Assembly: GCA_022414725.1 (NCBI GenBank)
Contig: CM039462.1
Span: forward strand, 122,532,984 to 122,596,983
From: Microglena sp. YARC
Taxonomy: Eukaryota; Chlorophyta; Chlorophyceae; Chlamydomonadales; Chlamydomonadaceae
DNA: 64,000 nt
Direction: 5' to 3'
The notes under the pieces: generated by a model
Databases searched by the model: none
Seen by the model: only the letters and a program-made list of their open reading frames with translations
Told to the model about the DNA's origin: nothing
Position numbers and translations under genes: made by a program
Shown: piece by piece, positions 903-46,945 of the stretch
Numbering within the stretch: position 1 is the first letter of the stretch
How the letters are laid out: the number at the start of each line of letters is the position of its first letter

Positions 903-1482
903 TTGTGTGTGATGTTCAGCACTCCCCCTTGTGTGATGTTCAGCACTCCCCTTTGTGTGATGTTCAGCACTCCCCCTTGTGTGATGTTCAGCACTCCCCC
1001 TTGTGTGATGTTCAGCACTCCCCCTTGTGTGATGTTCAGCACTCCCCCTTGTGTGATGTTCAGCACTCCCCCTTGTGTGATGTTCAGCACTCCCCCTTGT
1101 GTGATGTTCAGCACTCCCCCTTGTGTGATGTTCAGCACTCCCCCTTGTGTGATGTTCAGCACTCCCCCTTGTGTGATGTTCAGCACTCCCCCTTGTGTGA
1201 TGTTCAGCACTCCCCCTTGTGTGATGTTCAGCACTCCCCCTTGTGTGATGTTCAGCACTCCCCCTTGTGTGATGTTCAGCACTCCCCCTTGTGTGATGTT
1301 CAGCACTCCCCCTTGTGTGATGTTCAGCACTCCCCCTTGTGTGATGTTCAGCACTCCCCCTTGTGTGATGTTCAGCACTCCCCCTTGTGTGATGTTCAGC
1401 ACTCCCCTTTGTGTGATGTTCAGCACTCCCCCTTGTGTGATGTTCAGCACTCCCCCTTGTGTGATGTTCAGCACTCCCCCTT
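903..1482. repeat. 24-bp minisatellite, about 24 copies
   Basis: The unit TGTGTGATGTTCAGCACTCCCCCT is repeated about 24 times with almost no divergence; two copies carry T for C in the C run. Because 24 is a multiple of three and the unit lacks stops in several frames, frames on both strands stay open and give artificial peptides such as CVMFSTPP repeats. Its place downstream of the RBBP4-like exon on the minus strand suggests an intronic location. The near identity implies recent amplification or active homogenisation. Confidence 0.95.
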
Positions 1483-1584
1483 GGCGGAGACAAGCTGCAA
1501 ACTGCCAGTCAAGCAGGGAAGCAGGGCAAAGCAACCATAATACCATATCTATCATATTACCAGATACAACAACATCCTTATCCG

Positions 1585-1840
1585 CATTGTCATGTTCTTA
1601 CTCCTCCTCCTCCTCCTCTTCTTCATCATCATCGTCACCATCCCCACCACCAACACCAACACAACAACCACCACCACCACCCTCATCCTGCTCTCATACT
1701 CGTCCTCATCCCCATCCCCATCTTCATCATCATTCTCATCATCACAAACCTCCCCGTCCCTTCCCCTCCTCCTTTCCCTCCCCCTCCCCCTCCCCCCCCA
1801 CCCCCTCCTCCTTTCCCTCCCCCCCCCCCCCCCCCCCCCC
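1585..1840. repeat. CT/TCA-rich low-complexity tract
   Basis: Runs of TCC, TCA and CCACCA units end in a poly-C stretch at about 1819-1840. On the minus strand this lies directly after the splice donor at 1845-1844, so it is probably the start of an intron. Apparent Ser/Pro open frames are not credible proteins. Confidence 0.75.
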
Positions 1841-1845
1841 CTCAC

Positions 1846-2299
1846 CTCCATCTGCAGCCGATATGCGGTACAGACTGATGTGCGATCCAATACACTTGGT
1901 GGCGACGAGATCAGGGTTTTGCGGCATGGCCCTAGCTCGATCCACATCTCCCTCATGCTGAAATACGCTTTCGACACGCAGTACCGGGCCCCCCTGGTCC
2001 CCGCAATTGTCCAAATCCCCCTTGGACAAACTACACACCATCAGCACATTTGGCTCCTGACCACTGGTCTGGGTCCCCACCACCAGCTTAACTGGATGTT
2101 GGCCCTGGCTGGCTTGTGTTGGCCCTGGCTGCCCCCCTGGGTGGGCTGGGATCCAGTCTACAGTAAGGCTAGGCCAATCAAGGTTCTTCTGGATGAAAAA
2201 GGTGTAGAGGAGGGGGATGTTCTCTTCCCATGCAGTGAGCCGCCCCTTGCGTTTGCTCAGCGACTCCACCTCCCCATCATCAGAATCACTTTGATTCAT
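1846..2299 (-). CDS. RBBP4/MSI1-like histone-binding WD40 protein, first exon
   Basis: Partial gene. The translation starts MNQSDSDDGE and carries the N-terminal histone-H4-binding helix of the RBAP48/MSI1/CAF1 family: WEENIPLLYTFFIQKNLDWP, then SLTVDWIP, a Gly/Pro/Gln-rich insert, KLVVGTQTS and RARAMPQNPDLVATK. Family members are subunits of CAF-1, PRC2, NURF and histone deacetylase complexes in the nucleus and bind histones H3-H4. The reading frame leaves homology at a good donor (GAG then GTGAGG, GT at 1845-1844), so the exon is taken to end at 1846. The WD40 blades that should follow are not visible between 1 and 1845, which is all repeats; they must lie beyond the window start or be lost. 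The ATG at 2299 is the first in frame and fits family length. Confidence 0.75.
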
Positions 2300-2545
2300 G
2301 GGTAGCTATCTAGCTACAGATATGTATGTAGCTAAATAGCTACAGGTCTGTAATAAGCGTGCTGACTACAGATCCGTACGTAAGAGCCGTAAGTAGCTAA
2401 TTAGCTACAGAACCGCAAGTAGTTAACTAGCTACATATCTGTAAGTAGTTAGCTAGCCACAGGTCTGTAAGTAGCTAGCAAGCCACAGATTTGCAAGTAG
2501 CTAACAACAGATCTGAAAGTAGACAAGAAGCTTCAGATGCTAGCA
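2300..2545. repeat. degenerate TAGCTA-type tandem repeat
   Basis: A roughly 30-bp unit containing GTAGCTAGCTACAGATCTGTAA is repeated about eight times with heavy divergence. It lies immediately upstream of the ATG of the minus-strand RBBP4-like exon, where its promoter and 5' leader should be. I see no defined promoter element. Confidence 0.7.
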
Positions 2546-4003: not shown

Positions 4004-7000
4004 ATGCACCAGAGCAAAAAGATGCTGCTGCGATTAGACGATGGCTCTCTGATTGGTGCGTATCGCACATGCCCCATAATGCGGACGAAATAAGTGTGCT
4101 ACCATTTCTCGTCCCAGATGGTCCTCCGCCCCCTTTCCCCCTGGAAATCATGCATGTGTGTGCATGTATGTGTGTGAGATAGAGTGCCAGAGCTTTTGCA
4201 TCCCATCTAAGATGATCATCAGGCCCTATTGGCCCTTCTCGCCATGCAGATGGGGTTTATTACAGTCCAGGGGTAACCCAACTAAGCTAACTGGCATGGT
4301 CTTGGCCGAGCAACAGCTTGTAGCGCATCCCACAACAGTAGCAGTGATTACAGTCCAGGGGTGGCCAACTAGGCCAATTGACATGTTCTTGGCAGAGCAG
4401 CAGCTTCTAGCGCACCCCAAAGCAGTAGCAGTGATTACAGGCCAGGGGTCTGCCACTGAGCTAACTGGCATGTCCTTGCCCTGCTGCAGGTCCCAGCTCA
4501 GTGCTTGGTGATATCAGCACCAGCAGTGACATGAAGCTGACACTGCCTGTGCCTCTGTGTTTATGTAAACACACATTTCAGACCCATATGCACAAGCAGT
4601 ACCACCAGCGCTACCACAGAGCTGACAGTGCTTGTGAGTTTGCATTAACACTCATATGCCCATGCACCACCCAAATACCCATGCATCCATTCACAGCCCC
4701 CTCTCCACCAACCATTTGTTCCATGCTGCAGGTCCCACGTCAGTGCTTGGTGGTGGCAACACCAGCAGTGCCATAAAGCTGACCGTGGATAAAGCCATCC
4801 GCATGAACCCACCTAGGGCGGGTGCCAAGGATGTGGCGCGGCTTGAAAGGCTCATTGCATCTGTCAAGACTGCCATGCCTCATAGTTCTCTCGACCACTT
4901 CGCATTGGTAGGGGGGACATGCATGGCTGTATGTGTGTTTGTGTTTGTGTGTGTGTGCGTGTGTGTGCATGCAACTGCATGTATAGCCTCATAGTGCTCT
5001 GAACCAGTTTGCTTCGGTAGAGGGCACATGCTTGTCCGTGTGTGCGTGTGTGTATGTGTTTGTTTGTGAAGGGGCACATGCCCGGCTGTGTGTGTGCATA
5101 CTTGTGTATGTTTGGGAGGGGGCAAATGCAAAGCTGTGTGTGTTAGCATGTTTGTGTTTGTTTGGGAGGGGGCACATGCACGTCTGTATGTGTGTTAGCA
5201 TGTTTGTGTTTGTTTGGGAGGGGGCACATGCACAGCTGTGTGTGTGTATGTTTGGGAGGGGGCAAATGCAAAGCTGTGTGTGTGCATGTTTGTGTTTGTT
5301 TGGGAGGGGGCACATGCATGGCTGTGTGTGTGCGCATGTGTGTGCATGTTTGTGTGTTTTGGGGAGAGGGCACATGGGTGGCTGTGTGTGTGTTCATGTA
5401 CCTGCGTGATGCCTGCGCACGAGTGTGTGTATGTGTGCGTATATGTGTGTGGTGTCACAGAGTGTCTACTCCTTTTCGTTACCTCATCTTCATCTTCACT
5501 GGATATCTGAATCCTGATTATCTAAATTCCGATCATCTCAACCCTGACTGTATTGATCACAACTGTGTAGGAAGAGCATGACAGCAAGCGAGCTAGGGTG
5601 GATATTTCACCAATTACTGAAGCAGGTGGGTTGATCGCCTTTTTTCAATGACGCGTCACCATTCTGTTGCTGCATGGCGATGCATGGGTCTGGCTAAACT
5701 AGGCAGAAATGGCCCCACAAACTCCCCAGGCTCCACGCTTCCCACTCCGTGGGGTTCAGGGGGCAGTGCGTCACACTGAGGTCGCACCGAGTTGCTCAAT
5801 TTGCGACGCGTTACACACAAAAAAGTGGTTGATCAGTGGTATAAGTTGCGGTGGGGTGTGGGGCAAGGAACGAATAGATACTGTGTCTGTGTGTAAAGCT
5901 TCAATTTGTTGCCATGTGCTGAGTATGTCAAAGTATGGTGGGATCCTGAAGAAGTGTCTTACCCTCCTTACTCAGCCCCATGCCTCCCCACACCACTCCA
6001 CTCCACACTAACCCACCCGACCCCTCGCCCTCCCGCCCTCCCTCCTCCTCCGTTGCAATGGACAGACTACGCCAAGTGCAGTGCAATTTTGAAGAAGTGT
6101 GTCTCTTGGTTGGGCAGTCTCAGGGAACCTATGGATGCCAAGGTTGCCTTCTACAAGCCTGTCAATAGAGAGTGAGTGGAGTATAGAGTATATGGTGAAC
6201 ATGATTATGCAAATGGACATACTATTGATTGATTTATTGATGATTGTGTAAATGTGCATTGGCTTGTCTCAGGGACCTACCTGATGCCAACATTGCCTTC
6301 TACAAGCCAGTCAATAAAGAGTGAGTAGTATGTGGAGTCAATAAAGAGAAGGATAAAGATTCAAAATAGAGTGATTAGAGTGAAGAGTTAATAGTGGCAA
6401 GGAATTGGTTCCCAAATGATCTGCTGAATGGCTATAATAGAGAGTGAGTTGATTGGATTGGATTGTTACATAGTTTCTCAGCCAACTCTAGGTTTCCCAC
6501 TGTCTTCCAATTCCAAGTCCCCTCATACCAGAAGCACACCACAAACACACCACAAACACCACCACACTACAAGCACACCACAAATCAGCACTAACACATA
6601 ACAAAGACACTCCCACACGACAAACACACGCACCACAAACACACCACAAACACACCACAAGCACACCACGAACACACCACACACACACCACACACGCACC
6701 ACAAATACATACACCACAAACACACTACATACACACCACAAACACTCCACAAACACACCACACACACACACACGCACACCACAAACACACCACAAACATT
6801 AACACACACAAAAAAATACAGACACACCACAGACACACCACAAACAAACCACAGACACGACACAAACACACACACTCTACAAACACACGACAAACAAACC
6901 ACAAACACACCACAAACAGACACACATACCACAAACACACGACAAACACACCACAAACAGACACACACCACAAACACGCCACAAACACACACACACCACA

Positions 7001-10000
7001 AACACGCCACAAACACACACACACCACGAACACACCACAAACATTTCCGCCCTGACCTGCAGGGTGCTGGTAGACTACGACCTAATTGTAAACAACCCCA
7101 TCTGCTTGCAACAAATTGAAGAGAAGTTGAAGATGCGAAGATACTCATGTGTGCACGACTTCAGTGATGACATGAAGCTGTTAGACAGCAACTGCAAGCT
7201 TTACAATGTGAGTGGTGGGCGGAGACAGAATGTTGGTGTATGTTACAGCTTACCTGGGACCCTGTCTGGGCAAAACATTCTGCTACCCAGACAACCGAAC
7301 CCCGAGACAGGCTCGTGCTTACATATATATATGTTTGTATGATCTTATGCATAATATAATGCATGCGCATGATTTGAGTGATGACATGAAGCTTCTTGAC
7401 AGCAACTGCAAGCTGTACAATGCGAGTGGTAGACGGAGACATGATGTTGGTGTATGTTACAGGTTCATGTGCCTACATGTTCATGCTATATGGAAGCTGC
7501 AAGCTGTAATATGTGAGTGGTAGATGGAGACCTTTTTGTATTTATATATTTGTGTGTACGAGCAACGGCAACTGACAGCAACTGACAGCTGTACTACGTG
7601 AGCCGTAATTAGGGGCCAGCTTATCATATGATGTTGGCCAAAGGCGGGTATGATATCATATGATGTTGACCAAAGGCGAGTATGATATGATATGATATCA
7701 TGAAAACTGCATCATATGATTCAGCATGTAAAGGCTTACTTTAGCCTAGTCAGGCTGCAGGCATATTATGATATCATATGATGACATGTTATCATATGAT
7801 ATCATATATTGCCGTTCCCTTCATAATTAACATGATAATTTTAAATTGAATCTACAAACTGAATCACCCGCTTGAAGCCTCCGCATCCTGTAAACAATCC
7901 CTACTGTAAGGAGGGGGACAGGCTGGCCGGCGTGTCCAGGCAATAACTTGAGGTATCCTCAGCTGTCACCACAGAGCGTGTTTAAATGTTAAAATTAACC
8001 AATAAATTAAATCAATGGACGCATAATTTGTATATTTAATCGAATCAATTAGTTAAATCAACTGCTTGTAGCCCATGCAGCCTGTTAACAATCCCTATCA
8101 AAAGGTGGGGGACAAGCTGGCAGGGTTGTTCTTGTAGCTCTGGGTCTCCTCAGGTCTCATCACAGTGCGTGTTTAAATGTTAAAATGGACAAATTAATTC
8201 AATCAAATGAAACATAATGTATGTATATTAAATTGAATGGATGAATTAAATCACCCACTTTAAACCCATGCAGACCGAGAACAATCCCTGCCTATAAGTG
8301 TGAGACAAGCTGGGCAGTGTGTTTGAGTTACTATGCGTATCCCTCGGTATCAGCACAGAGCTCGCAAAATGAACCAATTAACAAAATAACAATGAGCGGA
8401 AATATGTTTGTTTGCTTTTTTGGTATATGTTTTTGTTTCGTTCACTCAACGGTTGAATGATTTACTTGGAACCCATGCAGCCTGAGAACGATCCCTACCG
8501 AAAGGTGGGGGACAGGCTGGCCACCATGTTTGAGCAGCTATGGGTATCCTCAGGTATGAGTGGGGAGCGCGGAAAGAGGGCCACGGCAGGAGTGGCAGCT
8601 CCTAAATATGACCCGGAAGTGTTTGAACCCCTGCCGGTTCCCAAGGCCAGCGGGGTGTCAAAGAGCGGAGGCAAGAAGGTGAGCACAATGTGGTTTGTAC
8701 ATACTGACTGCGCCCCACCCGCACACCACATCATCCCACACCACACCACTCTAGCACTATGTGGTTTGTACATACTGACTGCGCCCCACCCGCACACCAC
8801 ATCATCCCACACCACACCACCCAAGCACTATGTGGCTTGTACATACTGACTGCGCCCCACCCGCACACCACATCATCCCACACCACACCATCCAAGCACT
8901 ATGTGGCTTGTACATACTGACTGCGCCCCACCCCCACTCACCTACAGCCCCTGCCCAAGCACTATGGCGCTTGCTCATACTAAAGGTGCAAAGTTCAGTG
9001 CGATCCTGAATATGTGCCCCCCACCCCCACCCCCCCCACCCCCACCCCCTTCACTCACGTACACCCCTCAACCAAGCACTATTGGGCTTGTACATCCAGC
9101 CTATGTGTCTACCCTTGGACTGCAACAGACAAACAAACAGGCAAACAAACAGACAAACATATAGACAGACAGACGAACAGAGCAACAAATGGTCAGACAG
9201 GCGAACAGACTGACAGACAGGCAAGCAAGCGAACAAAAAGATAGACAGACAAACTGACTGAGACATACAGAAAAAACAGACAAAAAGATGGATGGACAGA
9301 GAAAGACAGACAGGCAGACAGACAAATTAACTAACAGATCAACAGACAGAGACAGACAGACAAATTGACAAACAGATCAACAGACAGAGACAGACAGACA
9401 AATTGACAGACAGATCAACAGACAGAGACAGACAGACAAATTGACAAACAGATCAACAGACAGAAACAGACAGATAGACAGACACTGTAGGAGTGGCAGC
9501 TCCTGAAAATGCCGCAGTGCTTTTCCCAAGGCCAGGGGGGTGAGGCACAAGAGCGGAAGCACAAAGTTGAGCTCTGTGGGGCTTGTACATACTGACTGTG
9601 CCAAGTTCAAAAAAGTTGCAACAGATAGACAGACAGGCAGACAGACAGGCAGACAGACAGGAAAACATAATAAGGTATTAATTTCTACTGTGCGGCTGGA
9701 CCGCAACGGAGTTGTGTACAGCTGTTCACCAGGCAGACAGACTGACTGACAGACAGACAGAATAAGGCGCTATTTTTTCTCAGAGGCTTGACCGCAATTT
9801 AGTTGTGTACAACAGTTTTACAGGCAGGCAGGCAGAAAGACAGAGTAAGGCGTTAATGTGCGGCTAGAGCGCGACCCACTTGTGTACAAGTGCTTACCAA
9901 AGAGAGAGGGGGAGAGAGAAAGAGGGGGGGGGGGGGGTAGATGGTGGACCAGCGTGATGAGCGACTGTTATTTGTTGCAATTGGGTAAATAAGGAGCATG

Positions 10001-12168
10001 GCTGCAGGAACAAATACCCATCCGTGGAGTTGCTTATCGAGTACAAAACTATGTCTTGGATCAGCTTGGATTCGCAAATAGATTTAACAAGCATGCATCT
10101 GCCTTTCTGCCTGCTGGCTGCTGGTGGGAAAGTTTCTTCACCTACACACACACCAACACACACACCACTGGAATCCAAGTTAACCCTGTATGTTGGTATG
10201 TATGTTACAGTCCAGGGGTGGACTGCTAGGCTAAGGGGGCTTGCCAAACCTCGAAGAATCAAGAAACTTCCAGGAGGACATGAAAAGAAAAAAGCTCCTG
10301 GCGGGGTCGAAACAAATGAAATATTTATGAGGGGGGGGGCATGAAATGAACTGTTAGTTAGCTCATCTGACATCAAATGATCATCCCTTTCACATTACAT
10401 CCGTGAACCCCCATTATATCAAGTGAGTGGAACCAGGGAAAACATAACATTCTAGCTTCACATAGCCAACCCATAGCCAGCCAGCCAAGTTGGGTGATCT
10501 CATGGGAGTGCTGAAAGTCGATTAAGATGATAACGAGATAGTTCACCAAGCCCATTGTATATCTTTAGGGATGGCAACTTATGGATGGCAAGTCAACAAC
10601 CTTGCCTCCTGAGAGTCATTGTGAAGCCCTCGAGCAGTACCCCTTGTCCAGCCTCGGCCCACATGGTCGGGACCCCCCCCCCCCCCCATATGTAATGCAT
10701 GTCGACCGCGCAAGTGCCAGTGGGCTCCCCTCGCCGAGACGCTTCAATCTGTCGAATTCCGAAGTGAAACTTCTCACTCAGTAAAAAGTCAGAAATACCT
10801 TGACAAAAGTTGATAAGGGTCTGGAAAAGGGGGGGGGGGGGGGGGGGGGGAGAAAAGGGTCCCCAGAATTTAACCAGATTTCTGGGATCAACCACTTACA
10901 CCCTCCTCTAACCGCTACCACCTCCCGATACCCGCACACCGACCCTGCCAGACTTTTTTATGGCGTTTTGTCGCACCCTAAAACTTCCCACCACTAGATT
11001 AACCGAGGGGTTGATTGATAGTACCACTAGTCATGAACTGGTCCCCAACCCTACATCTGCCCTTTCTCCTATAGGATGTAACTAACACACACATACACCA
11101 ATACCACCACCACCCAAATTCAACCCAACCCTACATCTGCCCTTTTGCCTGCAGGCTGTAACCAACACACGCACACACCAACACCCGCACTAAACCAAAG
11201 CCTACATCTACCCTTTCGCCTGCAAGCTGCCACCAGCACACACGCACACACACGTGCACACACTCACACACCAACACCACCCAAATCCAACCAAACCCTG
11301 CATCTCCCCTTTTTTGCCTGCAAGCTGCCACCTACACACACTCACACACGCCAACACCACCTGAACCCAACCCAACCCTACACCTACCCTGTTGCATGAA
11401 GGCTGCTGGTGGTGAGGTATCGTCAGGCGCCCGAGGTCCTAAGAATATGAGCCAGGAGCATCGGGGAATGATTGCAGAGCAGCTGGGCGAATTGAGTGAA
11501 GAGCATATGGAAGGTGACTGCCCACAACCACAACCACCTTGGGAACGGCAATGTGATCTTATGATGTTATGTCATCATTTGATATCATATGATGCCGGCA
11601 GTCTGACTGAGCTTAAGATACAATTTATATACAAAATCATATGTTGCAATCTGTTTGATATTATATGGTATCATACTCGCCTTCATTGTCAACATCAAAT
11701 GATTTGCAGGTCTTTACAACCACCACTATCACACACACACACACACACACTGCTCCTCTCTGTGTTTTGTTGCATCAGCCTTCCCCTGTGCCTTTCTTCC
11801 CCTCTGCGCTGTTCCTTTTTTCGGCTACGTGTAGCAGCTTCTAGGCAGCTCCCTTTTCCTGTCATTTTGCCAAACATAAAGCTAGCTAGTGTGCCTGAAA
11901 GCTTTAGTAAAGGGCATTGGAATGCAACTGAAAGCTTTGGGATTGGCCCAGTGGCTGTCTAATAGAGCTGACTGGAAGTTGCCATGCGAAGCCCAAAAAA
12001 TAAACACTGCCCCTCTGCCTCTTACGGATACCCACACCAGAACCAAATCACTAACCACCCTTACCACACGCACCTGCACCCACACCCATTCTCCCCCTAC
12101 ACACACACAAATACACACCTATACACATACCACACACACATACCCCCCCCCCACCACCACCACCACCA

Positions 12169-12202
<34 letters not shown>

Positions 12203-12542
12203 GACCCTGTTTCTCTCTCGGGCCTCATGCAGCTGCTGCCCCCATCCAAAACCGCACCTGCACCCACACCCGTACCAACACATACACTCACACCACGTTT
12301 CCCTCACAGGTCTCATGCAGCTGCTGCCCCCAGAGATGCTGGACGGAGCTGACGGAGAGTTCGAGTTGGACTTTGAGGCACTCGAGTTGGACACACTCTG
12401 GAAGATCGACGCCTTCCTCAAAAACATCAAGGCACAGGCCAACTCAGCACACCAAGGTTTTGGAGACGGTGGAACTGGGCTACGTCTGGAAGCGGATTCT
12501 GATGCGGAGGATGACAACGACCCCGATGATGATTCCGACTAG
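4004..12542 (+). CDS. BET-family protein: one bromodomain plus ET domain
   Basis: Eight exons: 4004-4055, 4732-4907, 5571-5625, 6066-6171, 7063-7207, 8481-8678, 11402-11513 and 12310-12542. Every junction has GT-AG ends and matching phase; total 1077 nt, 358 codons plus TAG. Residues about 95-205 form a bromodomain: helix Z (AILKKCVSWLGSL), ZA loop AFYKPVNRE with VAF where WPF is usual, YDLIVNNPICLQQIEEKL, then NCKLYN whose last Asn (about residue 178, last codon of its exon) is the acetyl-lysine-binding residue, and helix C (DPYRKVGDRLATMFEQLW). Residues about 261-322 are an extraterminal domain (EFELDFEALELDTLWKID), followed by an acidic tail. Such proteins read acetylated histones and recruit transcription factors in the nucleus. 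One bromodomain plus ET matches plant GTE proteins rather than two-bromodomain animal BETs. Exon 1 rests on phase and context only. An alternative 3' end is described at 13285-13547. Confidence 0.88.
4257..4485. repeat. intronic tandem repeat, about 88-bp unit, 2.5 copies
   Basis: Units begin TTACAGTCCAGGGGTAACCC or close variants at about 4259, 4349 and 4436 and include GAGCAACAGCTTGTAGCGCA. The last unit runs into the echoed acceptor at 4484. The opening motif belongs to a dispersed family also seen near 10206, 21430, 31917, 48175 and 63425. Confidence 0.8.
4484..5400 (+). repeat. echoes of BET exon 2 on both sides
   Basis: Upstream, 4484-4545 repeats the acceptor and start of exon 2 (GCTGCAG, GTCCCA, TCAGTGCTTGGTG), and 4585-4640 holds a weaker copy. 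Downstream, 4985-5030 repeats the exon end and donor (GCCTCATAGTGCTCTG, then GGTAGAGGGCACATGC against the real GGTAGGGGGGACATGC). From 5080 to 5400 a unit of about 60 bp with TTTGGGAGGGGGCACATGC recurs about seven times, apparently an amplified relic of the same donor region. Confidence 0.75.
5637..5826. mobile_element. MITE with ACTTTTTTGTG ends and exact 8-bp TSD
   Basis: A 190-bp element with imperfect inverted ends (GCCTTTTTTCAATGACGCGT, and the complement of GACGCGTTACACACAAAAAA) is flanked by the exact direct repeat GGTTGATC at 5629-5636 and 5827-5834. An 8-bp target duplication points to the hAT superfamily. It sits 11 bp downstream of the exon 3 donor of the BET gene. Related copies are at about 16950-17120 and 33493-33683. 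Confidence 0.8.
5917..6330 (+). repeat. echoes of BET exon 4 (bromodomain start)
   Basis: The segment at 5917-5960 resembles the exon 4 start (ATCCTGAAGAAGTGTCTTAC against ATTTTGAAGAAGTGTGTCTC) but carries a one-base shift. The segment at 6268-6330 repeats the exon end and donor (GCCTTCTACAAGCCAGTCAA, then AAAGAGTGAGTA). The real exon between them is the only copy with both sites and an open frame in phase with its neighbours. Confidence 0.8.
6525..7050. repeat. intronic CACCACAAACA minisatellite
   Basis: The tract consists of variants of an 11-bp unit, ACACACCACAA, directly before the acceptor of BET exon 5 at 7061-7062. Minus-strand frames (VFVVCVWC-type peptides) are artefacts. Confidence 0.9.
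7163..7600 (+). repeat. echoes of the end of BET exon 5
   Basis: The exon end (GACATGAAGCT, AGCAACTGCAAGCT, ACAAT then GTGAGTGG) is repeated at 7371-7465 with GC in place of the donor GT. It recurs as shorter relics near 7490-7530 and 7565-7600. The first copy also keeps about 40 bp of intron (GGAGACA, TGTTGGTGTATGTTACAG). Only the copy ending at 7207 joins in phase with exon 6. Confidence 0.85.
7609..7821. mobile_element. ATCATATGAT-family MITE, intronic copy
   Basis: The element starts TTAGGGGCCAGC and ends GCCGTTCCCT, and its termini and interior are rich in ATCATATGAT and TGATATCATATGATG. Relative to the copy at 16656 it is inverted and has an internal duplication. It lies between the echoes of exon 5 and those of exon 6. 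Confidence 0.75.
7889..8367 (+). repeat. three decayed tandem copies of BET exon 6
   Basis: Copies of the exon 6 start lie at about 7889, 8081 and 8274, before the real exon at 8481, so the period is 192-207 bp. Each copy includes intron upstream (GTTTAAATGTTAAAAT, TTAAATCA). Each is broken differently: the first has lost its AG acceptor and meets TAA; the second keeps CCCATGCAG and 18 codons before a TAG; the third meets TAA after seven codons. The copied protein is bromodomain helix C (PENDPYRKVGDRLA in the real exon). Confidence 0.92.
8690..8945. repeat. 67-bp tandem repeat, about four copies
   Basis: The unit begins AGCACTATGTGGCTTGTACA and continues through CACCACATCATCCCACACCA. It starts 11 bp after the exon 6 donor and later relics (near 9060 and 9570) carry GGGCTTGTACAT, so the array seems to have grown out of the donor-proximal intron. 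Confidence 0.9.
9118..9480. repeat. GACA/CAAA microsatellite in BET intron 6
   Basis: Imperfect (GACA)n and (CAAA)n sequence with a higher-order unit of about 50 bp (AACAGATCAACAGACAGA). A second patch lies at 9620-9760. The open frames are artefacts. Confidence 0.9.
9484..9600 (+). repeat. echo of the end of BET exon 6
   Basis: The segment repeats the last part of exon 6 with its donor region: GGAGTGGCAGCTCCTGAAAA, CCCAAGGCCAGGGGGGTG, AAGAGCGGAAGCAC, then GTTGAGC where the real exon has GTGAGC. It lies about 800 bp downstream of the exon, with the 67-bp and GACA arrays between. Confidence 0.8.
11040..11400 (+). repeat. tandem echoes of the BET exon 7 acceptor
   Basis: Units of about 90 bp contain CTACATCTGCCCTTTTGCCT and GCAGGCTGTAACC, then CACAC runs, and repeat about four times before the real acceptor at 11400-11401. 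A further copy at about 10100-10165 includes GCTGCTGGTGGGAAAG, matching the first codons of exon 7. Several echoes have a better polypyrimidine-CAG acceptor than the real TGAAG site. Confidence 0.8.
11540..11712. mobile_element. ATCATATGAT-family MITE, degraded
   Basis: It carries the family core (CATATGATGCCGGCAGTCTG, ATACTCGCCTTC) and partial ends (GGGAACGGCAATG). It lies in BET intron 7, 27 bp after the donor of exon 7. No clear target duplication is seen. Confidence 0.65.
11816..12000. mobile_element. CACTG-family MITE in BET intron 7
   Basis: Left end TTCGGCTACGTGTAGCAGCT, right end with GAGCTGACTGGAAGTTGCC. The interior keeps the family motifs AAAGCTTT and GGCCCAGTGGCTG. The ends have diverged more than in the copy at 23511-23709. 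Confidence 0.65.
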
Positions 12543-12569
12543 TTGTGCAAGCACCATGTTAAACCTAGG

Positions 12570-12735
12570 AGAAGGGCGCAGGCCAACTCAGCACACCTTG
12601 GTTTCGGAGACGGTGGGCCTGGGCTCTGTCTGGAGGCGGATTCTGATACAGAGGGTGACAACGACCCCGGTGATGATGATTCCAACTGGCAGTGTGAGCG
12701 CCATGTTCCAGCTAGAAGTAGGGCTGAAGATATGT
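12570..12735 (+). repeat. echo of the end of BET exon 8; partner at 12216-12260
   Basis: The downstream part repeats the last 150 bp of exon 8 (CAGGCCAACTCAGCACACC, GAGACGGTGG, TGACAACGACCCC). The stop is not conserved: the real copy ends GATTCCGACTAG, the echo GATTCCAACTGG. Upstream, 12216-12260 repeats the exon start (CTCATGCAGCTGCTGCCCCC) and then departs. The last exon is therefore flanked by partial copies on both sides, as internal exons are. Confidence 0.85.
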
Positions 12736-12946
12736 GGAGGGGATGATCTAGATTGGATTGTTACTCGGTTGTCAGCCAACTCTGGGCTGCTCACCGCCTT
12801 CCATTTCCAAGCCCCCCCGTGAGATACCCACGGAAAGCAGGGAGGCAACTATGTGGATGGGAAGCTCCCATGCATAGCCAAACAAATAAAGAGTGACATG
12901 AGTGGACAAGTGTAGACTAGGGGCTGCGTGCTCTACTGCTTCCCAC

Positions 12947-13146
12947 CAGTGTTTTCTTGTCAGCTACGAGCAGCAGCAGCTTCTAGACAGCTCCCATGAC
13001 TGGCTATTCTGCCAAACCTGGCACAACCTCGAGCACCTTGGTGCTGTCATAATCAGCTGACCAGAAGTGCTGAAATAGTTCAGTGCAGCCCAGTGGCCGG
13101 CTCAGGGAGCTGCCAAGAAGCTGCGTTGAAAAGCCGAAAAGAAAAA
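12947..13146. mobile_element. CACTG-family MITE
   Basis: The ends CAGTGTTTTCTTGTCAGCTA and GCCGAAAAGAAAAACCCAGT are inverted-repeat related; next to them lie AGCAGCTTCTAGACAGCTCC and GGAGCTGCCAAGAAGCTGC. It follows the BET gene and may form part of its 3' flank. Confidence 0.75.
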
Positions 13147-13284
13147 CCCAGTTCCTGTCCTACCATTCAAGTGCATGCGTGCTTCACTTGTGTTATCGAT
13201 TGCATGTTCTATCAGCCTTCAGTCTGCTCACCGTCTGCTGGCAGTGTAAACATGCGTAGTATTGACACTGCTACACCACACTCT

Positions 13285-13547
13285 TGAGTACAAGATGCAA
13301 TCACATAGGTAGCATAATCACTAATGCACCACACCCCTGAGTGCAGAATGCAATCACATGGGTACTACAATTACTACTGTACCACCCTCAAGAGTGCAGA
13401 ATGCAATCACATGAGAAGAACAGTCACTACTACGCCACCCTCAAGAGTGCAGAACGGAATCGCATGGATGTAGAAAGCGGCAGTAAATCTGCCAAAGCCC
13501 TCCTGCATAACTCGGTCCAATTGGATATGAATGAAATTGACTTCTGA
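13285..13547 (+). other. candidate alternative last exon of the BET gene, with acceptor echoes
   Basis: About 63-bp units with GAGTGCAG followed by AATGCAATCACATG recur three to four times and lead to a final copy. From 13451 that copy is open to a TGA at 13545-13547 (ending LLHNSVQLDMNEIDF). A weak donor inside BET exon 8 (CACCAAG then GTTTTG, near 12465) would join it in phase and replace the acidic tail. The echo pattern here and the echo over the donor argue for real splice sites. The unspliced end at 12542 is simpler and kept as the main model. Confidence 0.35.
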
Positions 13548-27600: not shown

Positions 27601-30600
27601 TATGATGCTACCTTCATGTCTGGTGACATTGCTGTAGCTCTGCTGGCTGACACATATTCTGGGACACTGATTCGAGTCTCAGTTGCAGGTGATGATGGCG
27701 GTGGAGGCGGAGGGGGAGGAGGAAGGGGTAGGGGGCCAAGGGTTGAGCAGATAGCGAAGGGACGAGAGGGAGAGGAGGAGGGGGAGGGGGAGAGGAAGGA
27801 GAGGGAGAGGAGGGAGGGGGGAGGAAGGAGAGGGGGGGAGGGAGGGGGGGGAGGAGGAGAGGAGGGGAAGGGAATGAAGGAGGGGGGGAAGGTGGAGTTG
27901 TAGGGGGGGGAGGGGATGGAGATGGCGAGGGGGACGGTGGAGGGAAAGGAGGTGGGGGAGGAGGAGGGTAGGTGGGGGAAGGGGAGGTGGAGGGGGAGGT
28001 GGAGGAGGGGAAGGAGGAGGTGGGGGGGGAGGCAGAGGGGGGGAAGGAGGAAAAGGGGAGGAGGGGGTGGAGGAGGAGGGGGAGGAGAAGGGGGAGGGGA
28101 GGGGGGGGGGAGGAAAAGGGGAGGAGGGGGAGGAGGAGGGGGAAGGAGGTGGGGAGGGGGTGGTGGAGGAGGCGAGGGGGGGGAGGGGGGGAGGGGAGGG
28201 GGAGGGGAGAGGGAGGAGGAGGGGGAGGAGGGGAGGAGGGGAGGAGAGGGAGGAGGTAGGGGGGCGGAGGGGGTGAAGGGGGGGGGGGGGAGGAGGGGGG
28301 GGGGGGAAGGGGGGGGGGAGGGGGGGGCGGAGGAAAAGGGGAGGGGGGGAGGGAGGAGGGGGAGGAGGAGGGGGAGGAGGGGGAGGTGAAGGGGGTGGAG
28401 GAGGGGTAGGTGGGGGAAGGGGAGGTGGAGGGGGAGGTGGAGGAGGGGAAGGAGGAGGTGGGGGGGGAGGCAGAGGGGGGAAGGAGGAAAAGGGGAGGAG
28501 GGGGTGGAGGAGGAGGGGAGGAGAAGGGGGAGGGGAGGGGGGGGGGAGGAAAAGGGGGAGGAGGGGGAGGAGGAGGGGGGGAAGGAGGTGGGGGAGGGGT
28601 GGTGGAGGAGGCGAGGGGGGGAGGGGGGGAGGGGGAGGGGGAGGGGAGAGGGAGGAGGAGGGGGAGGAGGGGGAGGAGGGGGAGGAGAGGAGGAGGTAGG
28701 GGGGCGGAGGGGGGGGTGAAGGGGGGGGGGGAGGAGGGGGGGGGGTGAAGGGGGGGGGAGGGGGGGCGGAGGAAAAGGGGGAGGGGGGGAGGGAGGAGGG
28801 GAGGAGGAGGGGGAGGAGGGGAGGTGAAGGGGGTGGAGGAGGGGAGGGGGGGAGGGAGGAGGGGGAGGAGGGGGAGGAGGGGGAGGAGGGGGAGAGGGAG
28901 GAGGAGGGGTGGGGGAGGAGGAGGAGGGCGGAGGGAGAGGAGGGGGAGACGGAGGAGGGGGTGGAGGGGAGGAGGGGGGGGAGAGGGGGGAGGGGGGGGG
29001 AGGAGGGGAGGGGAGAGGGAGGAGGGGGAGGAGGGGGAGGAGGGGAGGAGGGGGAGAGGGAGGAGGGGAGGAGGAGGGGGGGTGAGGGGGGAGGAGGGGG
29101 GGAGGGGGAGGGGGGAGGACTTGGAGGGGGGGGAGGGGGAGAGGGAGGAGGGGAGGAGGTGGGGGTGGAGAGGGGGAGGAGGAGGGGGGGAGGACTTGGA
29201 GGAGGGGGAGGAGGAGGAGGAGGAGAGGGGGGGGGGGGGGGGGGGAGGCGGTGGTGGTGGTGAGATTGGCATATAAGGAGGGTATGGATATTCAGGAGGG
29301 ATAGATGGAGGGTCATACAAGAAGCCCGGTGTGCCTATGGGAGGTCTGGGAGGGGGCCTAGGGGGCCAAGGGGGTGGGTAAGGACGACGGGGTCTATACG
29401 GCTGTCTGGGTGGGGGCACTGGGGGTGAAGGGGGAGGGCTGGGTGGTAGGGGGGGCTGGGAGGGGGGTGAAGGGGGAGGACTTGGTGGGCTGGGAGGGGG
29501 GGGGGCTGGGAGGGGGGGTGGGGGCTGGGAGGGGCGGTGGCTGGGAGGGGGTGGCGGGGAGGAGGGGGACTGGGTGGAGGGGGGGGGAAGGAGGGGGGCT
29601 TGGAGGTAGAGGGGGGCTTGGAGGGGAAGGGGGAGGAGATGGAGGAGAGGGTGGCGGACTGGGCGGGGTGGGGAGCAGGTGGGGGAGGAGGGGGTGGAGG
29701 AGGTGAGGGTGGAGGGCTTGGGGGCGGGGCAGGGGATTGGGAGGGCCGGGAGGTGGAGGGGGAGAGGGTGGGGTGGGGGGCTTGGGGAGGGTGGGGGGGA
29801 GGTGGGGGGGTGGTGCAGGGGGGGGAGAAGGAGGGCTAGGAGGACTAGGTGGGGGTGATGGTGGAAGAGGAGGCGAAGGAGGGACGGTGGAGGTGATGGC
29901 GGAGGTGGCTGCGGGCTTGGTGGGGGGGAGGGAAGGGTGGTGAGGTGTGGGAGCGGGTGGGGGGGTGTTGGAGGAGGGGGGGAGCAGGAGGAGAGGGGAG
30001 GGGGACACTGGGGGGAGGAGGAGGTAGTGAGGGGGAGGGCTGGGGCTAGGAGGGATATTTGGGGGGGGTGGAGGGGGGTGGAAGGGGATGGGGACAAACA
30101 CCTGAGTCACAGTGACCTGGGTACCGTCAGAGGCAGGGTCCAGGACATCGCACGTGGTCAGGTTCGATGCTGTCACAGAGCGGACGAAGAAATCCACTGT
30201 CAGGGAGATGGTGCTTGTTCGGCATGGATCGAAAGTGTCCATCGCAAAGGCCCAGGAGGAGCAGGTCCTGTGGGTGGCGGGTGGTTTAGGGATGGGTAAA
30301 GAAGGAGCAGGTCCTGTGGGTGGTTAGTGGTGGGTGGTGGGTAGTTTTTGGTTCAGGGTTCAGAAGGAGGAGCAGGTCCTATGGGTGGTAGGCCAGAGTG
30401 TTTGAGGAAAGGACGGAGTGTTCTTACAAAGCACCATGATGCCTGATATCACTGCTTTTGAGCGGAGCCCCCCATTCTGGAGGGACGGGAGCCCCCAGAG
30501 TCTCCGCGTTGTCCGTCTGTGCAACCACACGAAGCCAAGTCACCCTGGCCCTAACTGTCTCGTAAAGCGTGGCTTTGGTTTGCTGCACTCCATTCCTGCA

Positions 30601-33600
30601 GAGTGATCTGTTATCTGTTGCGGTGACCCAATGAGTGTTTGACCCAGTTGATGATTTTGTGACACTGTTGTCAACGTACACACCCACACCCACAGTCCCA
30701 CTCCTACACCTCACACTCAAACCCACCCACACCCACACCAACGACTTCGTTGCGCACCTGTATCCGTTATCAGTTGTGGTGATCCGCTGAGTGTTTGACC
30801 CATTTGCTGAGTTCGTGACACTGAAGTCAATGTACTGCCCAGCTGTAGAGTTCACTAACATCATCCATGGGCAGTTTAGTCGAATGCTTCCGGTCCACCT
30901 GTTAGTGGGGAGGGAGAGGGTGAGGGTGGGGGGGATGGTGTGTGTGTGTGTGTGTGTGTGGGGGGTCTGACAAGGGAATGAGCTGCAAAGTTAGAACTTA
31001 GCACGAACATGAGACCATAAGGACACGACACATACCACATTACGTTTTGTCAACCAGACTTACTTTCCGCTATTTGTCATTCGTTGAAAGAAGTAGCCGA
31101 TGCGTTCTGTTGTCATGCCTCCAGCACCACCACCCAACTCTATAGTTAGCTCAGTCCCAACAATGTTAATAGAGGACACATATAGTCAAACCAATACTAC
31201 AGATACAAACAAACCAACAAAAATGCCCAGCAGACTTACTTTCCGCTATATGTCATGAATTGAAATAGGAAGCCGATGCGTTATGTTGTCATGCCTCCAG
31301 CACTATCATCCCTAAACAAATGAAGGTTCCACGTTTTGCAAGGCATGAGGTTGGGAGCGCCAGCCCGTAGGCTTGCGCTGGGGCCAACCAGCAAAAGGCA
31401 CAATCATACACATTCATAGTCAGCTCAGTCCCAGTAATGTTATTAGAGGAGAGAAAGAAAAAGCAGTACGCCAAGAAGGCGTGGATTGGAAGCTGTCCAA
31501 AGGAGATCCTCTGACAACTCCGACCATGTGATGGATGGACAAAACACATAAGCACATACCAAAACGTTTACCAAACAGACTTACGTTCCGCTATATGTCA
31601 TGAATTGGAAGAGGCGGCCGATGCTTTCTGTGGTCGTGCCTCCAGCACCATCATCCACCTCTATGGTTAGCTCAGTCTCGGCAATGTTAATAGGGGTGAC
31701 TTCTGACCTGCAATGTAGTTCATGTTTGTTACAGTTCAGGAGTATATGCATGTATATAAGTATATTACAGTCCAGAGGTAGATAAGGTGAATGGGGGAAA
31801 TGTCTAACCTGCAGTACAGTGTATGTACACAACAGTCCAGAGGTAGAAAAGGTGAATGTGGGCAATGTCGGGCCTGCAGTGTACTGTATGTATGCATGCA
31901 TGTATGCATGTAAGGATGTTACAGTCCAGGGGCAGGCCAAAAAGGCTAAAGGGACTTGCCCAACCGTGACAGGAAAGGCTAACAAAGAATGGATTCAATT
32001 ATTCTACATGTAAAGCATTGAAGCTAATGACACACACAGCAGATACGCGCAGAGGACGCAAGGACCCGCATTCATAGGGAACTGCTATATGACGACAAAT
32101 GATGCCGGCAGTCTGACTAGGCTAAAATATACCGTTCATGTACAATATCATTTGATGCACTTTGTATGATATCATACTCGCCTTTGGTCGGCATCATATG
32201 GTATGCCGGTCCCTACTCATTCTTAAAGTGAAACAAAGTGCAAAGGAGGCATCCTACTTGCACAAGCTATGGTACATGCAGGTGTTAGCTTACGTCACAT
32301 GCACGCAACATGTAACATGAAACATGAAGAGGAGACATGAAACATGAAACATGAAGAGGAGCAGAGGAGGCAACTAGCATGTACAAGCTATCGGATGTGC
32401 AAGTGTTTGCTTGCGTCCTATCCACAAGTGAAATACGAATGAATATGAACTCAAGCAAAAAAGAGCAGAGGAGACAACCTACCCGCACAAACTGTTATCA
32501 TCCACATTTCCGTCAAAGAAGAAAGGGAGAGAGCACTTATTCTCATCCCGGCCGTCATCGTCATCATTCTACAGGTGGGGGTTGGGTGGGGGTTGAGGGT
32601 GAGGGGTCAGAGGTGAGGGGTGGGGCTGTGGGATGGGGGTTGGGGTTGGGGGTTGAGGGGTGGGGGTGAGGAGTGAGCACGTAATCTCATCCAGACCATC
32701 ATTGTCATCATTCTGCAGGTGAGGGTGGGTGGGGGGCCGAGGTGGGGGGTGGGTGGATGAGGCGGGTGGGGTGGGGAGGTGGATGGGGAGGGTGGAGGGA
32801 GGGGGAACCCTAAACCATAAACCCTATTTGTAGATGTTTACCCTAAATTGTTCAGCTCTGACTAACGGCATTCAGCTATATTAAATATCCTTGGTTGTAG
32901 GAACGGCATTAAGTCATATTAGCAGTACACCTCTCACTAACAACATTAAGTCATACTACAGCAATTCAGCATATGATTTGGAATCAACAGCCGTAGATCA
33001 TACTTCATATATACCCCAAATTTTGCAGGCCAAATTTACGGCCATTCTCCCATAATTCTCACAATTCTCGGAATTTCAGGCCAAATCATAAGTACGACCT
33101 GTTTTGAAAGATCAAAATCCAAAGCATCCGCTGAATCCCCATAACGATCACATTACTCACCACACAGGTGCTGTCATCCCCAAGCTCACAAGGGAGGCAT
33201 GCCCCATCCAAACAATCTTTACTATTACCTCTAGCAACGATATGGCTCACAGGAACGGTATGAAGGCATGCTGACAATACAGCTCTCAATAACAGCATTA
33301 ACTCTTATTAATATAATAACGATCGCTGCCAATTTGGGGGGTCTACGGCAACCTTTCCTTTGGCTCATAAGGGTGCCTTATGGGTGGGAAGGGTGCATTA
33401 TCGCTCATAAGGGTGCATTATGGGTAAGAAGGGTGACGTGGAGGTGCAGGAAAGGGTACCAAAGACCCCCAACATTTGCAGGGGATAATGTCACTGTTTT
33501 TATTTTGTGCGATGCGTCGCAAATTGAGCAACTCAATGCGACCCCAGTGCGACCCCAGTCCCGAACCCTGCATAGTGCGAAGAAAGGAACCAAGGGGGGG

Positions 33601-41367: not shown

Positions 41368-43028
41368 ATTCCCCCTTCTCTAGCCCTAGCCTTCTCCTGA
41401 AGTCTAGTACTCTTTCGAATGAGAAACTCATCAGGGGTTACAGTCGCATAATCCCTGTGAGTAGGTTTTTTAACCGTTTTAGGTTTTGGGTCGTTGGCAC
41501 CTATCACGGGTCGTACCCGAGAAGGGTGTTGTCTCCAATACAAATCGATTTGTTCAGAGCACATAGGTAACAACTCTTCTTCGAGTTCCCAAGAGTGAAC
41601 ATGGTCTGAGTGTAACCATTGTACAAAGTAATACACCGTACCAGACTGTATCTTGTGATCAACAACGTTGCTAATCTCGTAGATAGGTTCACCGCATGTG
41701 CGTAACAATTCCGGATTTGGTCTAATAAACCCAGTCCCGTCGGATAGGTATTCTTTGACAAGAGATACGTGAAACGTTGGATGAATCTTCCATCCTTCGG
41801 GGAGGGATAGAGTCACTGCAATGGTCTCCCCCCTCTGTTGGATAGTGTGAGAGATTTCGTAGGGACCAACGAATCTGGGCATGAGCTTCCGAGTCATACC
41901 AGGCCAGTATTTGATGTTCTTCGAGTTCAACAAAACTTCCTGACCGTGAGTATACTTCACCGGTCGACGGTGCAAGTCTGCATACGTTTTTTGACGATCC
42001 TTCGCGTCGTCTGTCGTTTTGCATGGGATAAGTTTGACCATCTTCGTAAGGCGATCAACGATCACGTAGATCTGATCAAAACCATTCGATTTCGGTAGCC
42101 CAACGATGAAGTCCATGGACAGTGAATCGAAGGGGGCGGTCGGAATCGAAAGGGGTTGAAGGTTACCCTGCGGGTTCTGATGTGAAATTTTTACCCGTTG
42201 GCAAGAATCACAGTGGCGTACGTAATCAACGACATCGAGTCGCATGGCAGGCCACCAATAGTAGCGTGCAACAGATCGAAAAGTTCGGTCGATGCCTCCA
42301 TGTCCACTTCGTTGGGTATCGTGGAAAGCAAACAAAATCCGAGCTTTGAGCGAATTACCATTCGGTACAACGATCTGCGACTCAGATGCTGCTCGTATGG
42401 ATTTGCCGGTGCCAACCCAGAAACCATCTGCCCGTTTGGAGAGGTGCTTGGTATTGTGCGGATTATCGAACCACAAGTCTTCCGTGTAACCATGCAGAAT
42501 ATCTGGGGCTATTTCGCGCATGTGGAGTGGGTCATTTGCGGACAGCCTCTGAATGAACAAAGCCGTAGCCTCTGAGAAGGCTGGATTCCTACTCAGAGGG
42601 TCAGCTACGTTAGTACGGCCCGCGATATGAGCCCACTTCATGTTCGTGAAGCGCGAGAAAAACTCAAGATATCGTGCCTGCTTTCTGCTCAGCATGGGCT
42701 GATTTGCAAGGTAGACGAGGGGTTCGTGGACGGTGTCAAGTTCGAACTTGCCAGTGCAACCTTCGAGGTAGCATCGCCATTCTTTCAAGGCCAAGTACAC
42801 TGCGAGTAATTCTTGCTCGCCCGTGGAGTAGTTTCGTTCAGCGCTTGAGAATTTGTGAGAGTGGTACGCGATGGGTCGCCCATCTTGCATGAGAACGCCC
42901 CCTGTACCAACGACAGAAGCATCGGATACCGCCCGATAGTCCTTTGCTGGGTCAGGGTGTGCAAGCAAAGGAGCCTTTGAAGACTTTCTTTGATGCCGAG
43001 GAATGCCTCCTGGCAGGCTTGGGTCCAA
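41289..43028 (-). pseudogene. pol 3' part: RNase H, truncated integrase, chromodomain
   Basis: The first part is RNase H (AVSDASVVGTGGVLMQDG, EQELLAVYLALKEW). Then the integrase zinc-binding region HX6HX~30CX2C (HDTQRSGH, CDSCQRVK) and the first catalytic Asp in LSMDFIVGLP. After CKTTDDAK the frame jumps straight to DRQKTYADLH, which normally lies near the integrase C-terminus. Roughly 150-200 residues with the second Asp and the Glu of the DDE triad are missing (junction near 42000). A chromodomain (YEISNVVDHKIQSGTVYYFV, SWELEEELL) ends the protein. The N-terminal end is offset by a frameshift from the RT frame near 42980. Confidence 0.9.
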
Positions 43029-44850: not shown

Positions 44851-44884
44851 CATCCCTATCTATGTCTACAAGCAGACCTACATC

Positions 44885-46560: not shown

Positions 46561-46650
46561 ACTCGGTGATGGTGGGCTCGAGGGGACGTCGGGGTGGGGA
46601 GTAAAGCGAGTGGCGCGGTTTGAAAGCGCGACCAGGCTCAAGAAACCAAT

Positions 46651-46945
46651 TGTGGTATATGAATACCTTGTAACACGGAGTGTCTTGTAACTGGAAGCCT
46701 AAGAAATGATCTGAGGAGTTTAGACGGCCCTAAGAGTCAGAAGCACGGCTTAAGACTCCCTTCCCGCTTCCAGCGCGTCTAGACCCTAATGGAACCCTCG
46801 TTTTAGGTATTCCCGAGTAGCTGATCAGATACTGATCAGTAGGTCAATTCGCTCGGTTTCAACTGCCTACAGAAGTCGTTCGTCATCTGTCGGAAAGTCG
46901 TCACCACCGCGTGGCAACTCAGTGGGAGGATCGTTATCCACCACA
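46651..46945 (-). repeat. 5' LTR
   Basis: 295 bp, equal to the LTR at 41073 except G for C in GATCTGAGGAG and T for C in CAGATACTGATC. It holds the promoter of the element in the minus sense. The target duplication GAAGC follows at 46946-46950. Confidence 0.95.

What the first reader, a model, noticed from the sequence alone, without database searches (positions are those of the whole stretch)
4004..13547. Exon echoes: most exons of the BET gene are flanked by decayed tandem copies of their own splice junctions
Exons 2, 4, 5, 6, 7 and 8 each have one to several partial copies nearby that cover the exon edge plus 20-150 bp of intron. Upstream copies cover the exon start and acceptor; downstream copies cover the exon end and donor. 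The same pattern appears in the membrane gene, the 18958-21626 gene and the ExoX-like gene. This is more regular than random microsatellite growth and suggests a mechanism that repeatedly duplicates DNA at exon borders. Transcription-linked replication slippage, repair of breaks at splice sites, or templating by partly spliced RNA are possible.
Basis: partly seen in the sequence, partly recalled or inferred. Interest (0 to 1): 0.88.

Follow-up and report, generated by a model that had tools for sequence, protein, structure and literature searches.

The report
Decayed tandem copies at splice junctions
In this green alga about half of the exon-intron borders examined have a decaying copy of themselves left behind in the neighbouring intron, most simply because the genome keeps duplicating short stretches of DNA in place and natural selection only lets the copy on the intron side rot.

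Summary
In the BET gene, 7 of 14 splice junctions plus the stop codon have a copy 91-242 bp (once 901 bp) away, far above shuffled controls. Exon 7's array holds only 4-5 exon bases and does not count. In 16 genes of the same 568-Mb chlamydomonadalean genome (BET, ten chaperonins, five kinesins), 54 of 116 junctions are spanned. The functional copy is exon-proximal in 145 of 145 alignments; an exon-edge probe finds copies on the intron side in 55 of 116 cases, on the other side in 0 of 116. Copies are direct (503 direct, 14 inverted pairs), carry unspliced intron, and decay neutrally, splice sites included.

Best explanation: frequent local tandem duplication that enlarges introns. Selection holds the exon-side copy, so the spare is always intronic; the polarity needs no border-specific machinery, and stop codons are echoed too (3 of 8). 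One part stays open: spanning events are about twice as frequent as an intron-wide uniform rate predicts. Recent transposon insertion may or may not account for this, depending on its share. A junction-targeted process is neither shown nor excluded. The event type is known; this prevalence I found in no paper.

The parts
4004..12542 (+). BET (bromodomain + ET domain) gene, coding span, 8 exons, 358 aa
4479..4541 (+). echo of exon 2 acceptor (copy of 4721-4783: 11 nt intron + 52 nt exon)
   Evidence: 54/63 identical, score 81 vs shuffled max 31; read as an exon in the same-species predicted protein P0001
4986..5066 (+). echo of exon 2 donor (31 nt exon + 50 nt intron)
   Evidence: 63/81 identical, score 72 vs shuffled max 33; missed by the BLAST criterion
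6266..6331 (+). echo of exon 4 donor (copy of 6117-6184)
   Evidence: 59/65, score 77 vs max 24; part of it read as an exon in P0001
7364..7465 (+). echo of exon 5 donor (copy of 7150-7251); donor GT has become GC
   Evidence: 88/102, splice dinucleotide lost
7497..7531 (+). second, shorter echo of exon 5 donor
   Evidence: 83% over 35 nt
7838..8353 (+). upstream copies, period about 194, of exon 6 acceptor and first part of exon 6
9483..9602 (+). echo of exon 6 end and donor (copy of 8582-8714), 901 bp away
   Evidence: 72% identical
11044..11406 (+). intronic array abutting exon 7; contains only 4-5 exon bases, so not a true junction echo
12148..12244 (+). echo of exon 8 acceptor (copy of 12239-12332); AG has become GG
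   Evidence: 62/78
12575..12724 (+). copy of the stop-codon region (12431-12577): a coding/non-coding border without a splice site
   Evidence: 82% over 150 columns, score 97 vs max 29

Best explanation
The genome undergoes frequent local tandem duplication of short stretches (nearest copy 64-330 bp away in 53 of 54 spanning cases), in direct orientation, all along genes; 53% of the intron bases examined lie in detectable tandem copies, so this is probably a main way its introns grow. Where such a unit crosses a coding/non-coding border, purifying selection keeps the copy that leaves the protein unchanged (upstream copy at a donor or stop codon, downstream copy at an acceptor). The other copy falls inside the intron or 3' flank and decays neutrally, splice site included. 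Shown: copies, direction, orientation, contiguity of exon and intron, slower divergence of the exon part, neutral decay of spare splice sites, no pair lying wholly inside any of 47 complete exons. Inferred: that selection is what removes exon-internal units, replication slippage or unequal exchange as the DNA process, and that most of the remaining excess at junctions comes from transposon dilution of introns and easier detection.
For: 54 of 116 junctions spanned in 16 genes (6/14 BET, 27/70 chaperonins, 21/32 kinesins). Polarity 145 of 145 alignments; exon-edge probe (score 34 or more) 55/116 right side, 0/116 wrong side; the best of 100 shuffles reaches that score for 1/116 and 0/116. Exon part diverges less than intron part: 0.117 vs 0.155, 39 of 54, p = 2e-4, as forward simulations with frozen exons give (0.104-0.114 vs 0.149-0.177). 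Splice dinucleotides in echoes retained 0.79 vs 0.77 for exon-part dinucleotides, difference 0.02 (-0.08 to 0.11): neutral. 503 direct vs 14 inverted pairs; 0 of 116 junctions spanned by an inverted copy. Raw duplicate coverage of introns is roughly flat with distance from the junction (0.33-0.51; first nine genes). 0 of 47 complete exons contain an internal pair (periods under about 50 bp are not seen by the aligner). 53% of 71,532 intron bases are tandem, and only 5% of tandem intron resembles other loci, so copies are local. Non-splice borders do it too: stops 3 of 8. Gene models independently confirmed: same-species protein P0019 agrees with all 9 junctions of gene D, P0021 with 6 of 7 of gene C.
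Against: In collapsed ('ancestral') coordinates the duplication probability peaks at the junction: 0.47 vs 0.17-0.27 beyond 150 nt. A uniform simulation without transposons predicts 0.22 and never reached 0.466 in 3000 resamples; with 15% recent insertions 0.31 (P = 0.006), with 30% 0.37 (P = 0.11) (those runs also differ in duplication rate and starting intron length, and their introns end longer than the real ones). Detection bias is only about 1.1-1.2x (spike-in). Junction-spanning and intron-only pairs have the same age distribution (median divergence 0.150 vs 0.152, n = 52 and 97, p = 0.91), which a pure survivorship account of the excess would not predict. More real pairs are shorter than 0.6 of their offset than in simulation (junctions 28% vs 12-14%, intron-only 55% vs 23-24%), so simple adjacent duplication is not the whole story.
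Confidence: 0.68

Rival explanations
1. Duplication is actively targeted to splice junctions (for example breaks or stalled forks at R-loops, or at the C-rich acceptor and G/T-rich donor flanks), so borders are hot spots.
For: Collapsed profile peaks at junctions and the decay length is about one unit; simulations need a 2-3x junction boost unless introns hold much recent transposon DNA; equal ages of spanning and intron-only pairs; intron ends are C-rich before acceptors (0.45 C) and somewhat G/T-rich after donors (0.59).
Against: Among the youngest pairs (age 0.05 or less) there is no excess: 0.052 at junctions vs 0.02-0.08 in introns, but that is 6 of 116. Exon-side ends are scattered over 25-98 nt (10-90%), not fixed. 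Transposon dilution is large: 20% of non-tandem intron already resembles other loci in a 0.29-Mb sample, and 2 of 3 segments tested genome-wide contain dispersed repeats. Stop codons are echoed at a similar rate (3 of 8).
Confidence: 0.22
2. Copies are templated by partly or fully spliced RNA.
For: None found beyond location at exon edges.
Against: The 54 spanning copies carry exon joined to its own unspliced intron; 49 exon-exon probes gave two hits, both in kinesin k5; the stronger is the exon itself (up to 45 of its 70 columns) extended weakly across the join. Intron-only and stop-codon duplications are of the same kind.
Confidence: 0.02
3. Echoes are functional: alternative or mutually exclusive exons, or decoy splice sites kept by selection.
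For: P0001, the same-species predicted protein, includes echo-derived segments at exons 2 and 4; 44 of 54 nearest echoes keep an intact GT or AG.
Against: Splice dinucleotides decay at the neutral rate; the two inserted segments are absent from the 6 other homologues aligned; echoes are mostly partial and of variable extent; P0019 contains no echo though 5 of 9 junctions of its gene are echoed.
Confidence: 0.06
4. Assembly or sequencing artefact.
For: Tandem repeats are error-prone in assemblies; reads were not available.
Against: Copies mostly differ by 5-30%, with intact coding copies and consistent polarity in 14 of 16 genes examined, on five contigs (genes F and H, 9 junctions, show none); divergence tracks exon/intron status.
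Confidence: 0.02

Closest known systems
Tandem duplication crossing an intron-exon boundary, potato RdRp gene (Ma, Lan and Niu 2016, PMC4974935; abstract and introduction read)
   Same: A tandem genomic duplication spans the border of an intron and an exon, copying exon edge, splice site and intron together.
   Different: One case, in which the spare copy became part of a new intron with a cryptic donor; here about half of the junctions examined are affected, the spare copy lies in the old intron and decays, and no new intron is shown.
Intron gain by tandem duplication of an AGGT-containing exon segment (Rogers 1989; Hellsten 2011, as cited in PMC4974935)
   Same: Local tandem duplication changes exon-intron structure while leaving the protein unchanged.
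   Different: That model duplicates exon-only DNA to make a new intron; here existing introns are lengthened.
Internal gene duplication / tandem exon duplication (Gao and Lynch 2009, cited in PMC4974935; mutually exclusive exons, recalled)
   Same: Tandem copies of exons inside genes.
   Different: Usually whole exons with both splice sites, often retained as alternatives; here mostly exon edges, neutrally decaying.
Intronic minisatellites (general, recalled)
   Same: Direct tandem arrays, multi-copy, intron-enriched.
   Different: Units are long (nearest offsets mostly 90-270 bp), often two to a few decayed copies, and extend into coding sequence.

Membership tests
Boundary-crossing tandem genomic duplication | direct copies close together | tested here: met
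   503 direct vs 14 inverted pairs up to 1.5 kb apart; none of 116 junctions spanned by an inverted copy
Boundary-crossing tandem genomic duplication | unit contains exon edge plus adjoining intron | tested here: met
   54 of 116 junctions with about 10 nt or more on both sides
Boundary-crossing tandem genomic duplication | copies adjacent (aligned length about equal to offset) | tested here: inconclusive
   median length/offset 0.96, but 28% of spanning pairs are below 0.6 vs 12-14% in simulation
Intron gain by tandem duplication | new functional intron created | not testable with these tools
   needs RNA-seq and an orthologue without the duplication
Tandem exon duplication / mutually exclusive exons | whole exon with both splice sites copied | tested here: not met
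   exon parts of copies 25-98 nt (10-90%); exon 6 of BET is a partial exception
Tandem exon duplication / mutually exclusive exons | copies under selection | tested here: not met
   splice dinucleotides 0.79 retained vs 0.77 neutral
Introner or other mobile element | copies dispersed at many loci | tested here: not met
   only 5% of tandem intron DNA resembles other loci of a 0.29-Mb sample vs 20% of non-tandem; not searched genome-wide for the echoes themselves
Spliced-RNA-templated copy | exons joined, introns absent | tested here: not met
   2 hits from 49 probes, both in one gene and weak across the join

The most novel reading that the evidence does not exclude
Splice junctions are true hot spots: a transcription- or splicing-coupled process in this alga duplicates 60-330 bp of DNA across exon borders 2-3 times more often than elsewhere in introns, so that introns grow from their ends and a record of each event is kept beside the exon.
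Probability: 0.22. Interest if true: 0.85.

Novelty: new variant of a known kind. Interest (0 to 1): 0.6.

Why it matters
If about half of all splice junctions carry dated, decaying copies of themselves, this genome is a natural record of how introns lengthen. Event ages, rates and unit sizes can be read directly, and the rate at functional borders can be compared with neutral DNA. Some 80% of the copies still show an intact splice dinucleotide (44 of 54 nearest copies), so the alga is also a test of how the spliceosome ignores near-identical decoys. There is a practical side: gene predictors can take echoes for exons (P0001), so protein sets from such genomes may contain duplicated segments that are not real.

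Tried and rejected
Considered and dropped: (1) 'No enrichment, because junctions (39%) are covered less than intron interiors (47%)' (47% vs 51% in the full set). This was my first reading; it ignores that a duplicated intron base is counted in both copies, and reversed it. (2) 'Enrichment is only easier detection': spike-ins show just 1.1-1.2x. (3) 'Enrichment is survivorship': ages do not differ, although the youngest pairs show no excess; both rest on few events. (4) A nucleosome- or Okazaki-sized unit: periods mostly lie between 60 and 220 bp and fall off above, but the lower edge is set by the aligner, so I do not claim it. (5) Codon-usage gene finding for the rest of the window gave nothing useful. 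(6) Species: closest named relatives are Chlamydomonadales. The size is near the 532 Mb reported for Chlamydomonas sp. ICE-L (PMC11228838, passages), but identity was not tested.

How the junction set was made and what was dropped: of 31 candidate introns in eight chaperonin genes, 10 with poor joint fits were not taken as pairs; 15 single ends were kept (10 from those introns, 5 acceptors of first matched exons). Two further chaperonins (13 junctions) were read by eye. The kinesin junctions (32) came from the script with hand changes: one intron of k3 and one acceptor of k4 replaced, terminal borders added, and k5's first intron kept although it adds about 13 residues to the fit. Genes were chosen by density of exon matches: 10 of the chaperonin genes and 5 of the kinesin clusters. 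Protein-level overlaps hinting at echoes were visible in both lists before fetching. The BLAST criterion misses some copies (BET exon 2 donor; and a tandem copy of one 'non-tandem' segment turned up). The simulations depend on assumed unit lengths, gene heterogeneity and insertion timing.

Papers: ten searches of open-access PMC papers. No title or abstract opening shown described genome-wide border echoes; some lists were capped (for example 15 of 84). PMC4974935: abstract and introduction read. PMC11228838: passages. Others: listings only.

Odds left as they were.
Full report
What is there. The gene at 4004-12542 is a single-bromodomain BET protein gene with eight exons and seven GT-AG introns, open for 358 aa, with Pfam Bromodomain and BET domains. 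Of 18 homologues, those with a named organism are green algae of the Chlamydomonadales. One, P0001 from EukProt, is identical to my model except for two insertions, so I take it as the same species' predicted protein. Both insertions are translations of echoes (exon 2 at about 4490, exon 4 at about 6275), and both are absent from the 6 other homologues aligned. The window lies in a 568-Mb assembly of 2390 contigs.

Check of the observation. BLAST of the window against itself finds 134 direct local pairs; three block-shuffled versions find none. Smith-Waterman of each BET border gives six clear spanning copies at splice junctions plus one at the stop codon, with scores of 65-134 against shuffled maxima of 24-33. 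BLAST adds the exon 6 donor. Thus 7 of 14 splice junctions. Exon 7's array barely touches the exon, and exons 1 and 3 have no spanning copy.

Is it general? I built gene models for ten chaperonin (Cpn60/CCT) genes and five kinesins from Pfam matches in the same genome. Two were checked against independent EukProt predictions: all 9 junctions of gene D and 6 of 7 of gene C agree. With one criterion (pair up to 1.5 kb apart, score 40 or more, about 10 nt or more on both sides), 33 of 84 junctions in the first eleven genes and 21 of 32 in the kinesins are spanned, 54 of 116 in all; donors 24 of 57, acceptors 30 of 59. Without BET it is 48 of 102. Genes differ: k5 has 5 of 5, H has 0 of 7 and F 0 of 2. 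The kinesin match list itself shows repeated partial exons with this polarity, e.g. C1:145291615-145292182 and C2:15919754-15920484.

Polarity. In all 145 spanning alignments the functional border is the first copy at donors and the last at acceptors. Probing with the terminal 50 exon bases finds a copy on the intron side in 55 of 116 and on the other side in 0 of 116. This follows from tandem duplication plus selection: using the other copy would put intron and duplicated exon into the message. No pair lies wholly inside any of 47 complete exons. The stop codon of BET, and two of seven others, shows the same at a border that has no splice site.

Decay. The exon-derived part of the pairs differs by 0.117, the intron part by 0.155 (39 of 54 junctions, p = 2e-4), as expected if only one exon copy is free to change. 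Forward simulations with frozen exons reproduce these values. Splice dinucleotides in echoes are kept at 0.79 against 0.77 for exon-part dinucleotides. The spare sites are therefore neither visibly preserved nor removed by selection, and 44 of 54 nearest copies still carry an intact GT or AG.

Nature of the copies. Pairs are direct (503 vs 14 inverted), and no junction is spanned by an inverted copy. They include contiguous intron; 49 spliced-join probes gave only two hits in one gene, weak across the join. Nearest offsets are 64-330 bp in 53 of 54 spanning cases, 901 bp in one. 53% of 71,532 intron bases lie in such pairs and a further 10% in short-period repeats. Copies are local: 5% of tandem intron resembles other loci of a 0.29-Mb sample, against 20% of non-tandem intron. 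About 28% of spanning pairs and 55% of intron-only pairs are shorter than 0.6 of their offset, more than in simulation (12-14% and 23-24%), so insertions, deletions or spaced copies occur as well.

Are junctions hot spots? Raw coverage is roughly flat with distance, and junctions are covered no more than intron interiors (0.39 vs 0.47; 0.47 vs 0.51 in the full set). But a duplicated intron base is counted twice, while a functional junction is counted once. With redundant copies collapsed, the probability is 0.47 at junctions, 0.37 at 50-100 nt, 0.17 at 150-250 nt and 0.18-0.27 further in. Uniform forward simulation without transposons gives 0.20-0.22 at junctions and no peak. Two things weaken the contrast. 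Detection is slightly easier at junctions (0.80-0.87 vs 0.67-0.79). And non-tandem intron is rich in dispersed repeats: 20% resembles other loci in a 0.29-Mb sample, rising about 4 points per doubling, and of 3 segments searched genome-wide 2 had 19 or more other matches over about half their length while 1 was unique. With 15% or 30% recent insertions the uniform model gives 0.31 (P = 0.006) or 0.37 (P = 0.11). Age evidence is mixed: spanning and intron-only pairs have equal ages, while the youngest pairs show no junction excess (6 of 116). Stop codons, borders without splicing, are spanned in 3 of 8, too few to separate from 54 of 116. I therefore hold uniform duplication plus selection as most likely (0.68) and junction targeting as a live minority view (0.22).

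Comparison with what is known. The closest described event is a single boundary-crossing tandem duplication in a potato gene (PMC4974935, abstract and introduction read), which made a new intron. Tandem duplication as a source of introns and internal gene duplication are established ideas (cited there). I found no description of such copies at about half of the junctions of a genome; the ten searches and their limits are listed in Tried and rejected. The kind is known; the scale and the neutral record it leaves are what is new.

Noticed in passing
window 4490-4640 and 6275-6320; protein P0001: The same-species predicted protein (EukProt gene23334-30582_t) includes two echo-derived segments missing from the 6 other homologues aligned, probably gene-prediction errors; one would interrupt the bromodomain.
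   Followed up: partly
window 42788-46698, - strand: Open frames resembling a retrotransposon: reverse-transcriptase-like (42788-43978) and a zinc-knuckle motif (44888-45331). Identified by eye (recalled), no family search run.
   Followed up: no
window 1745-2305, - strand: Reading frame resembling the start of an RbAp48/MSI1-type WD40 protein (recalled resemblance).
   Followed up: no
window 7620-7830 and 11560-11720: Near-palindromic TATCATATGAT-rich sequence recurs in two BET introns, perhaps a small mobile element.
   Followed up: no
window 906-1483: 24 nearly perfect (99%) copies of a 24-bp unit, much more uniform than most other tandem repeats here.
   Followed up: no
window 27772-29225: 1.5 kb of purine-rich (GAG) sequence; GC skew 0.91 in the 28-30 kb block.
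   Followed up: no
window 32526-32804: 144-bp tandem whose unit contains CTACAG|GTGAGG, possibly another donor echo.
   Followed up: no
L012 (C6:13962293-13963762): Intronless full-length Cpn60 frame of 544 aa, while most of its relatives in this genome are split into many exons; possible contaminant, transfer or retrocopy.
   Followed up: no
L050 (C3:40000001-40010000): An arbitrarily chosen 10-kb stretch is 97% tandem repeat, probably satellite; L051 is 64% short-period repeat.
   Followed up: no
C1:190744341-190771344: Two kinesin-like gene copies about 26 kb apart with the same matched exons, including degraded ones.
   Followed up: no
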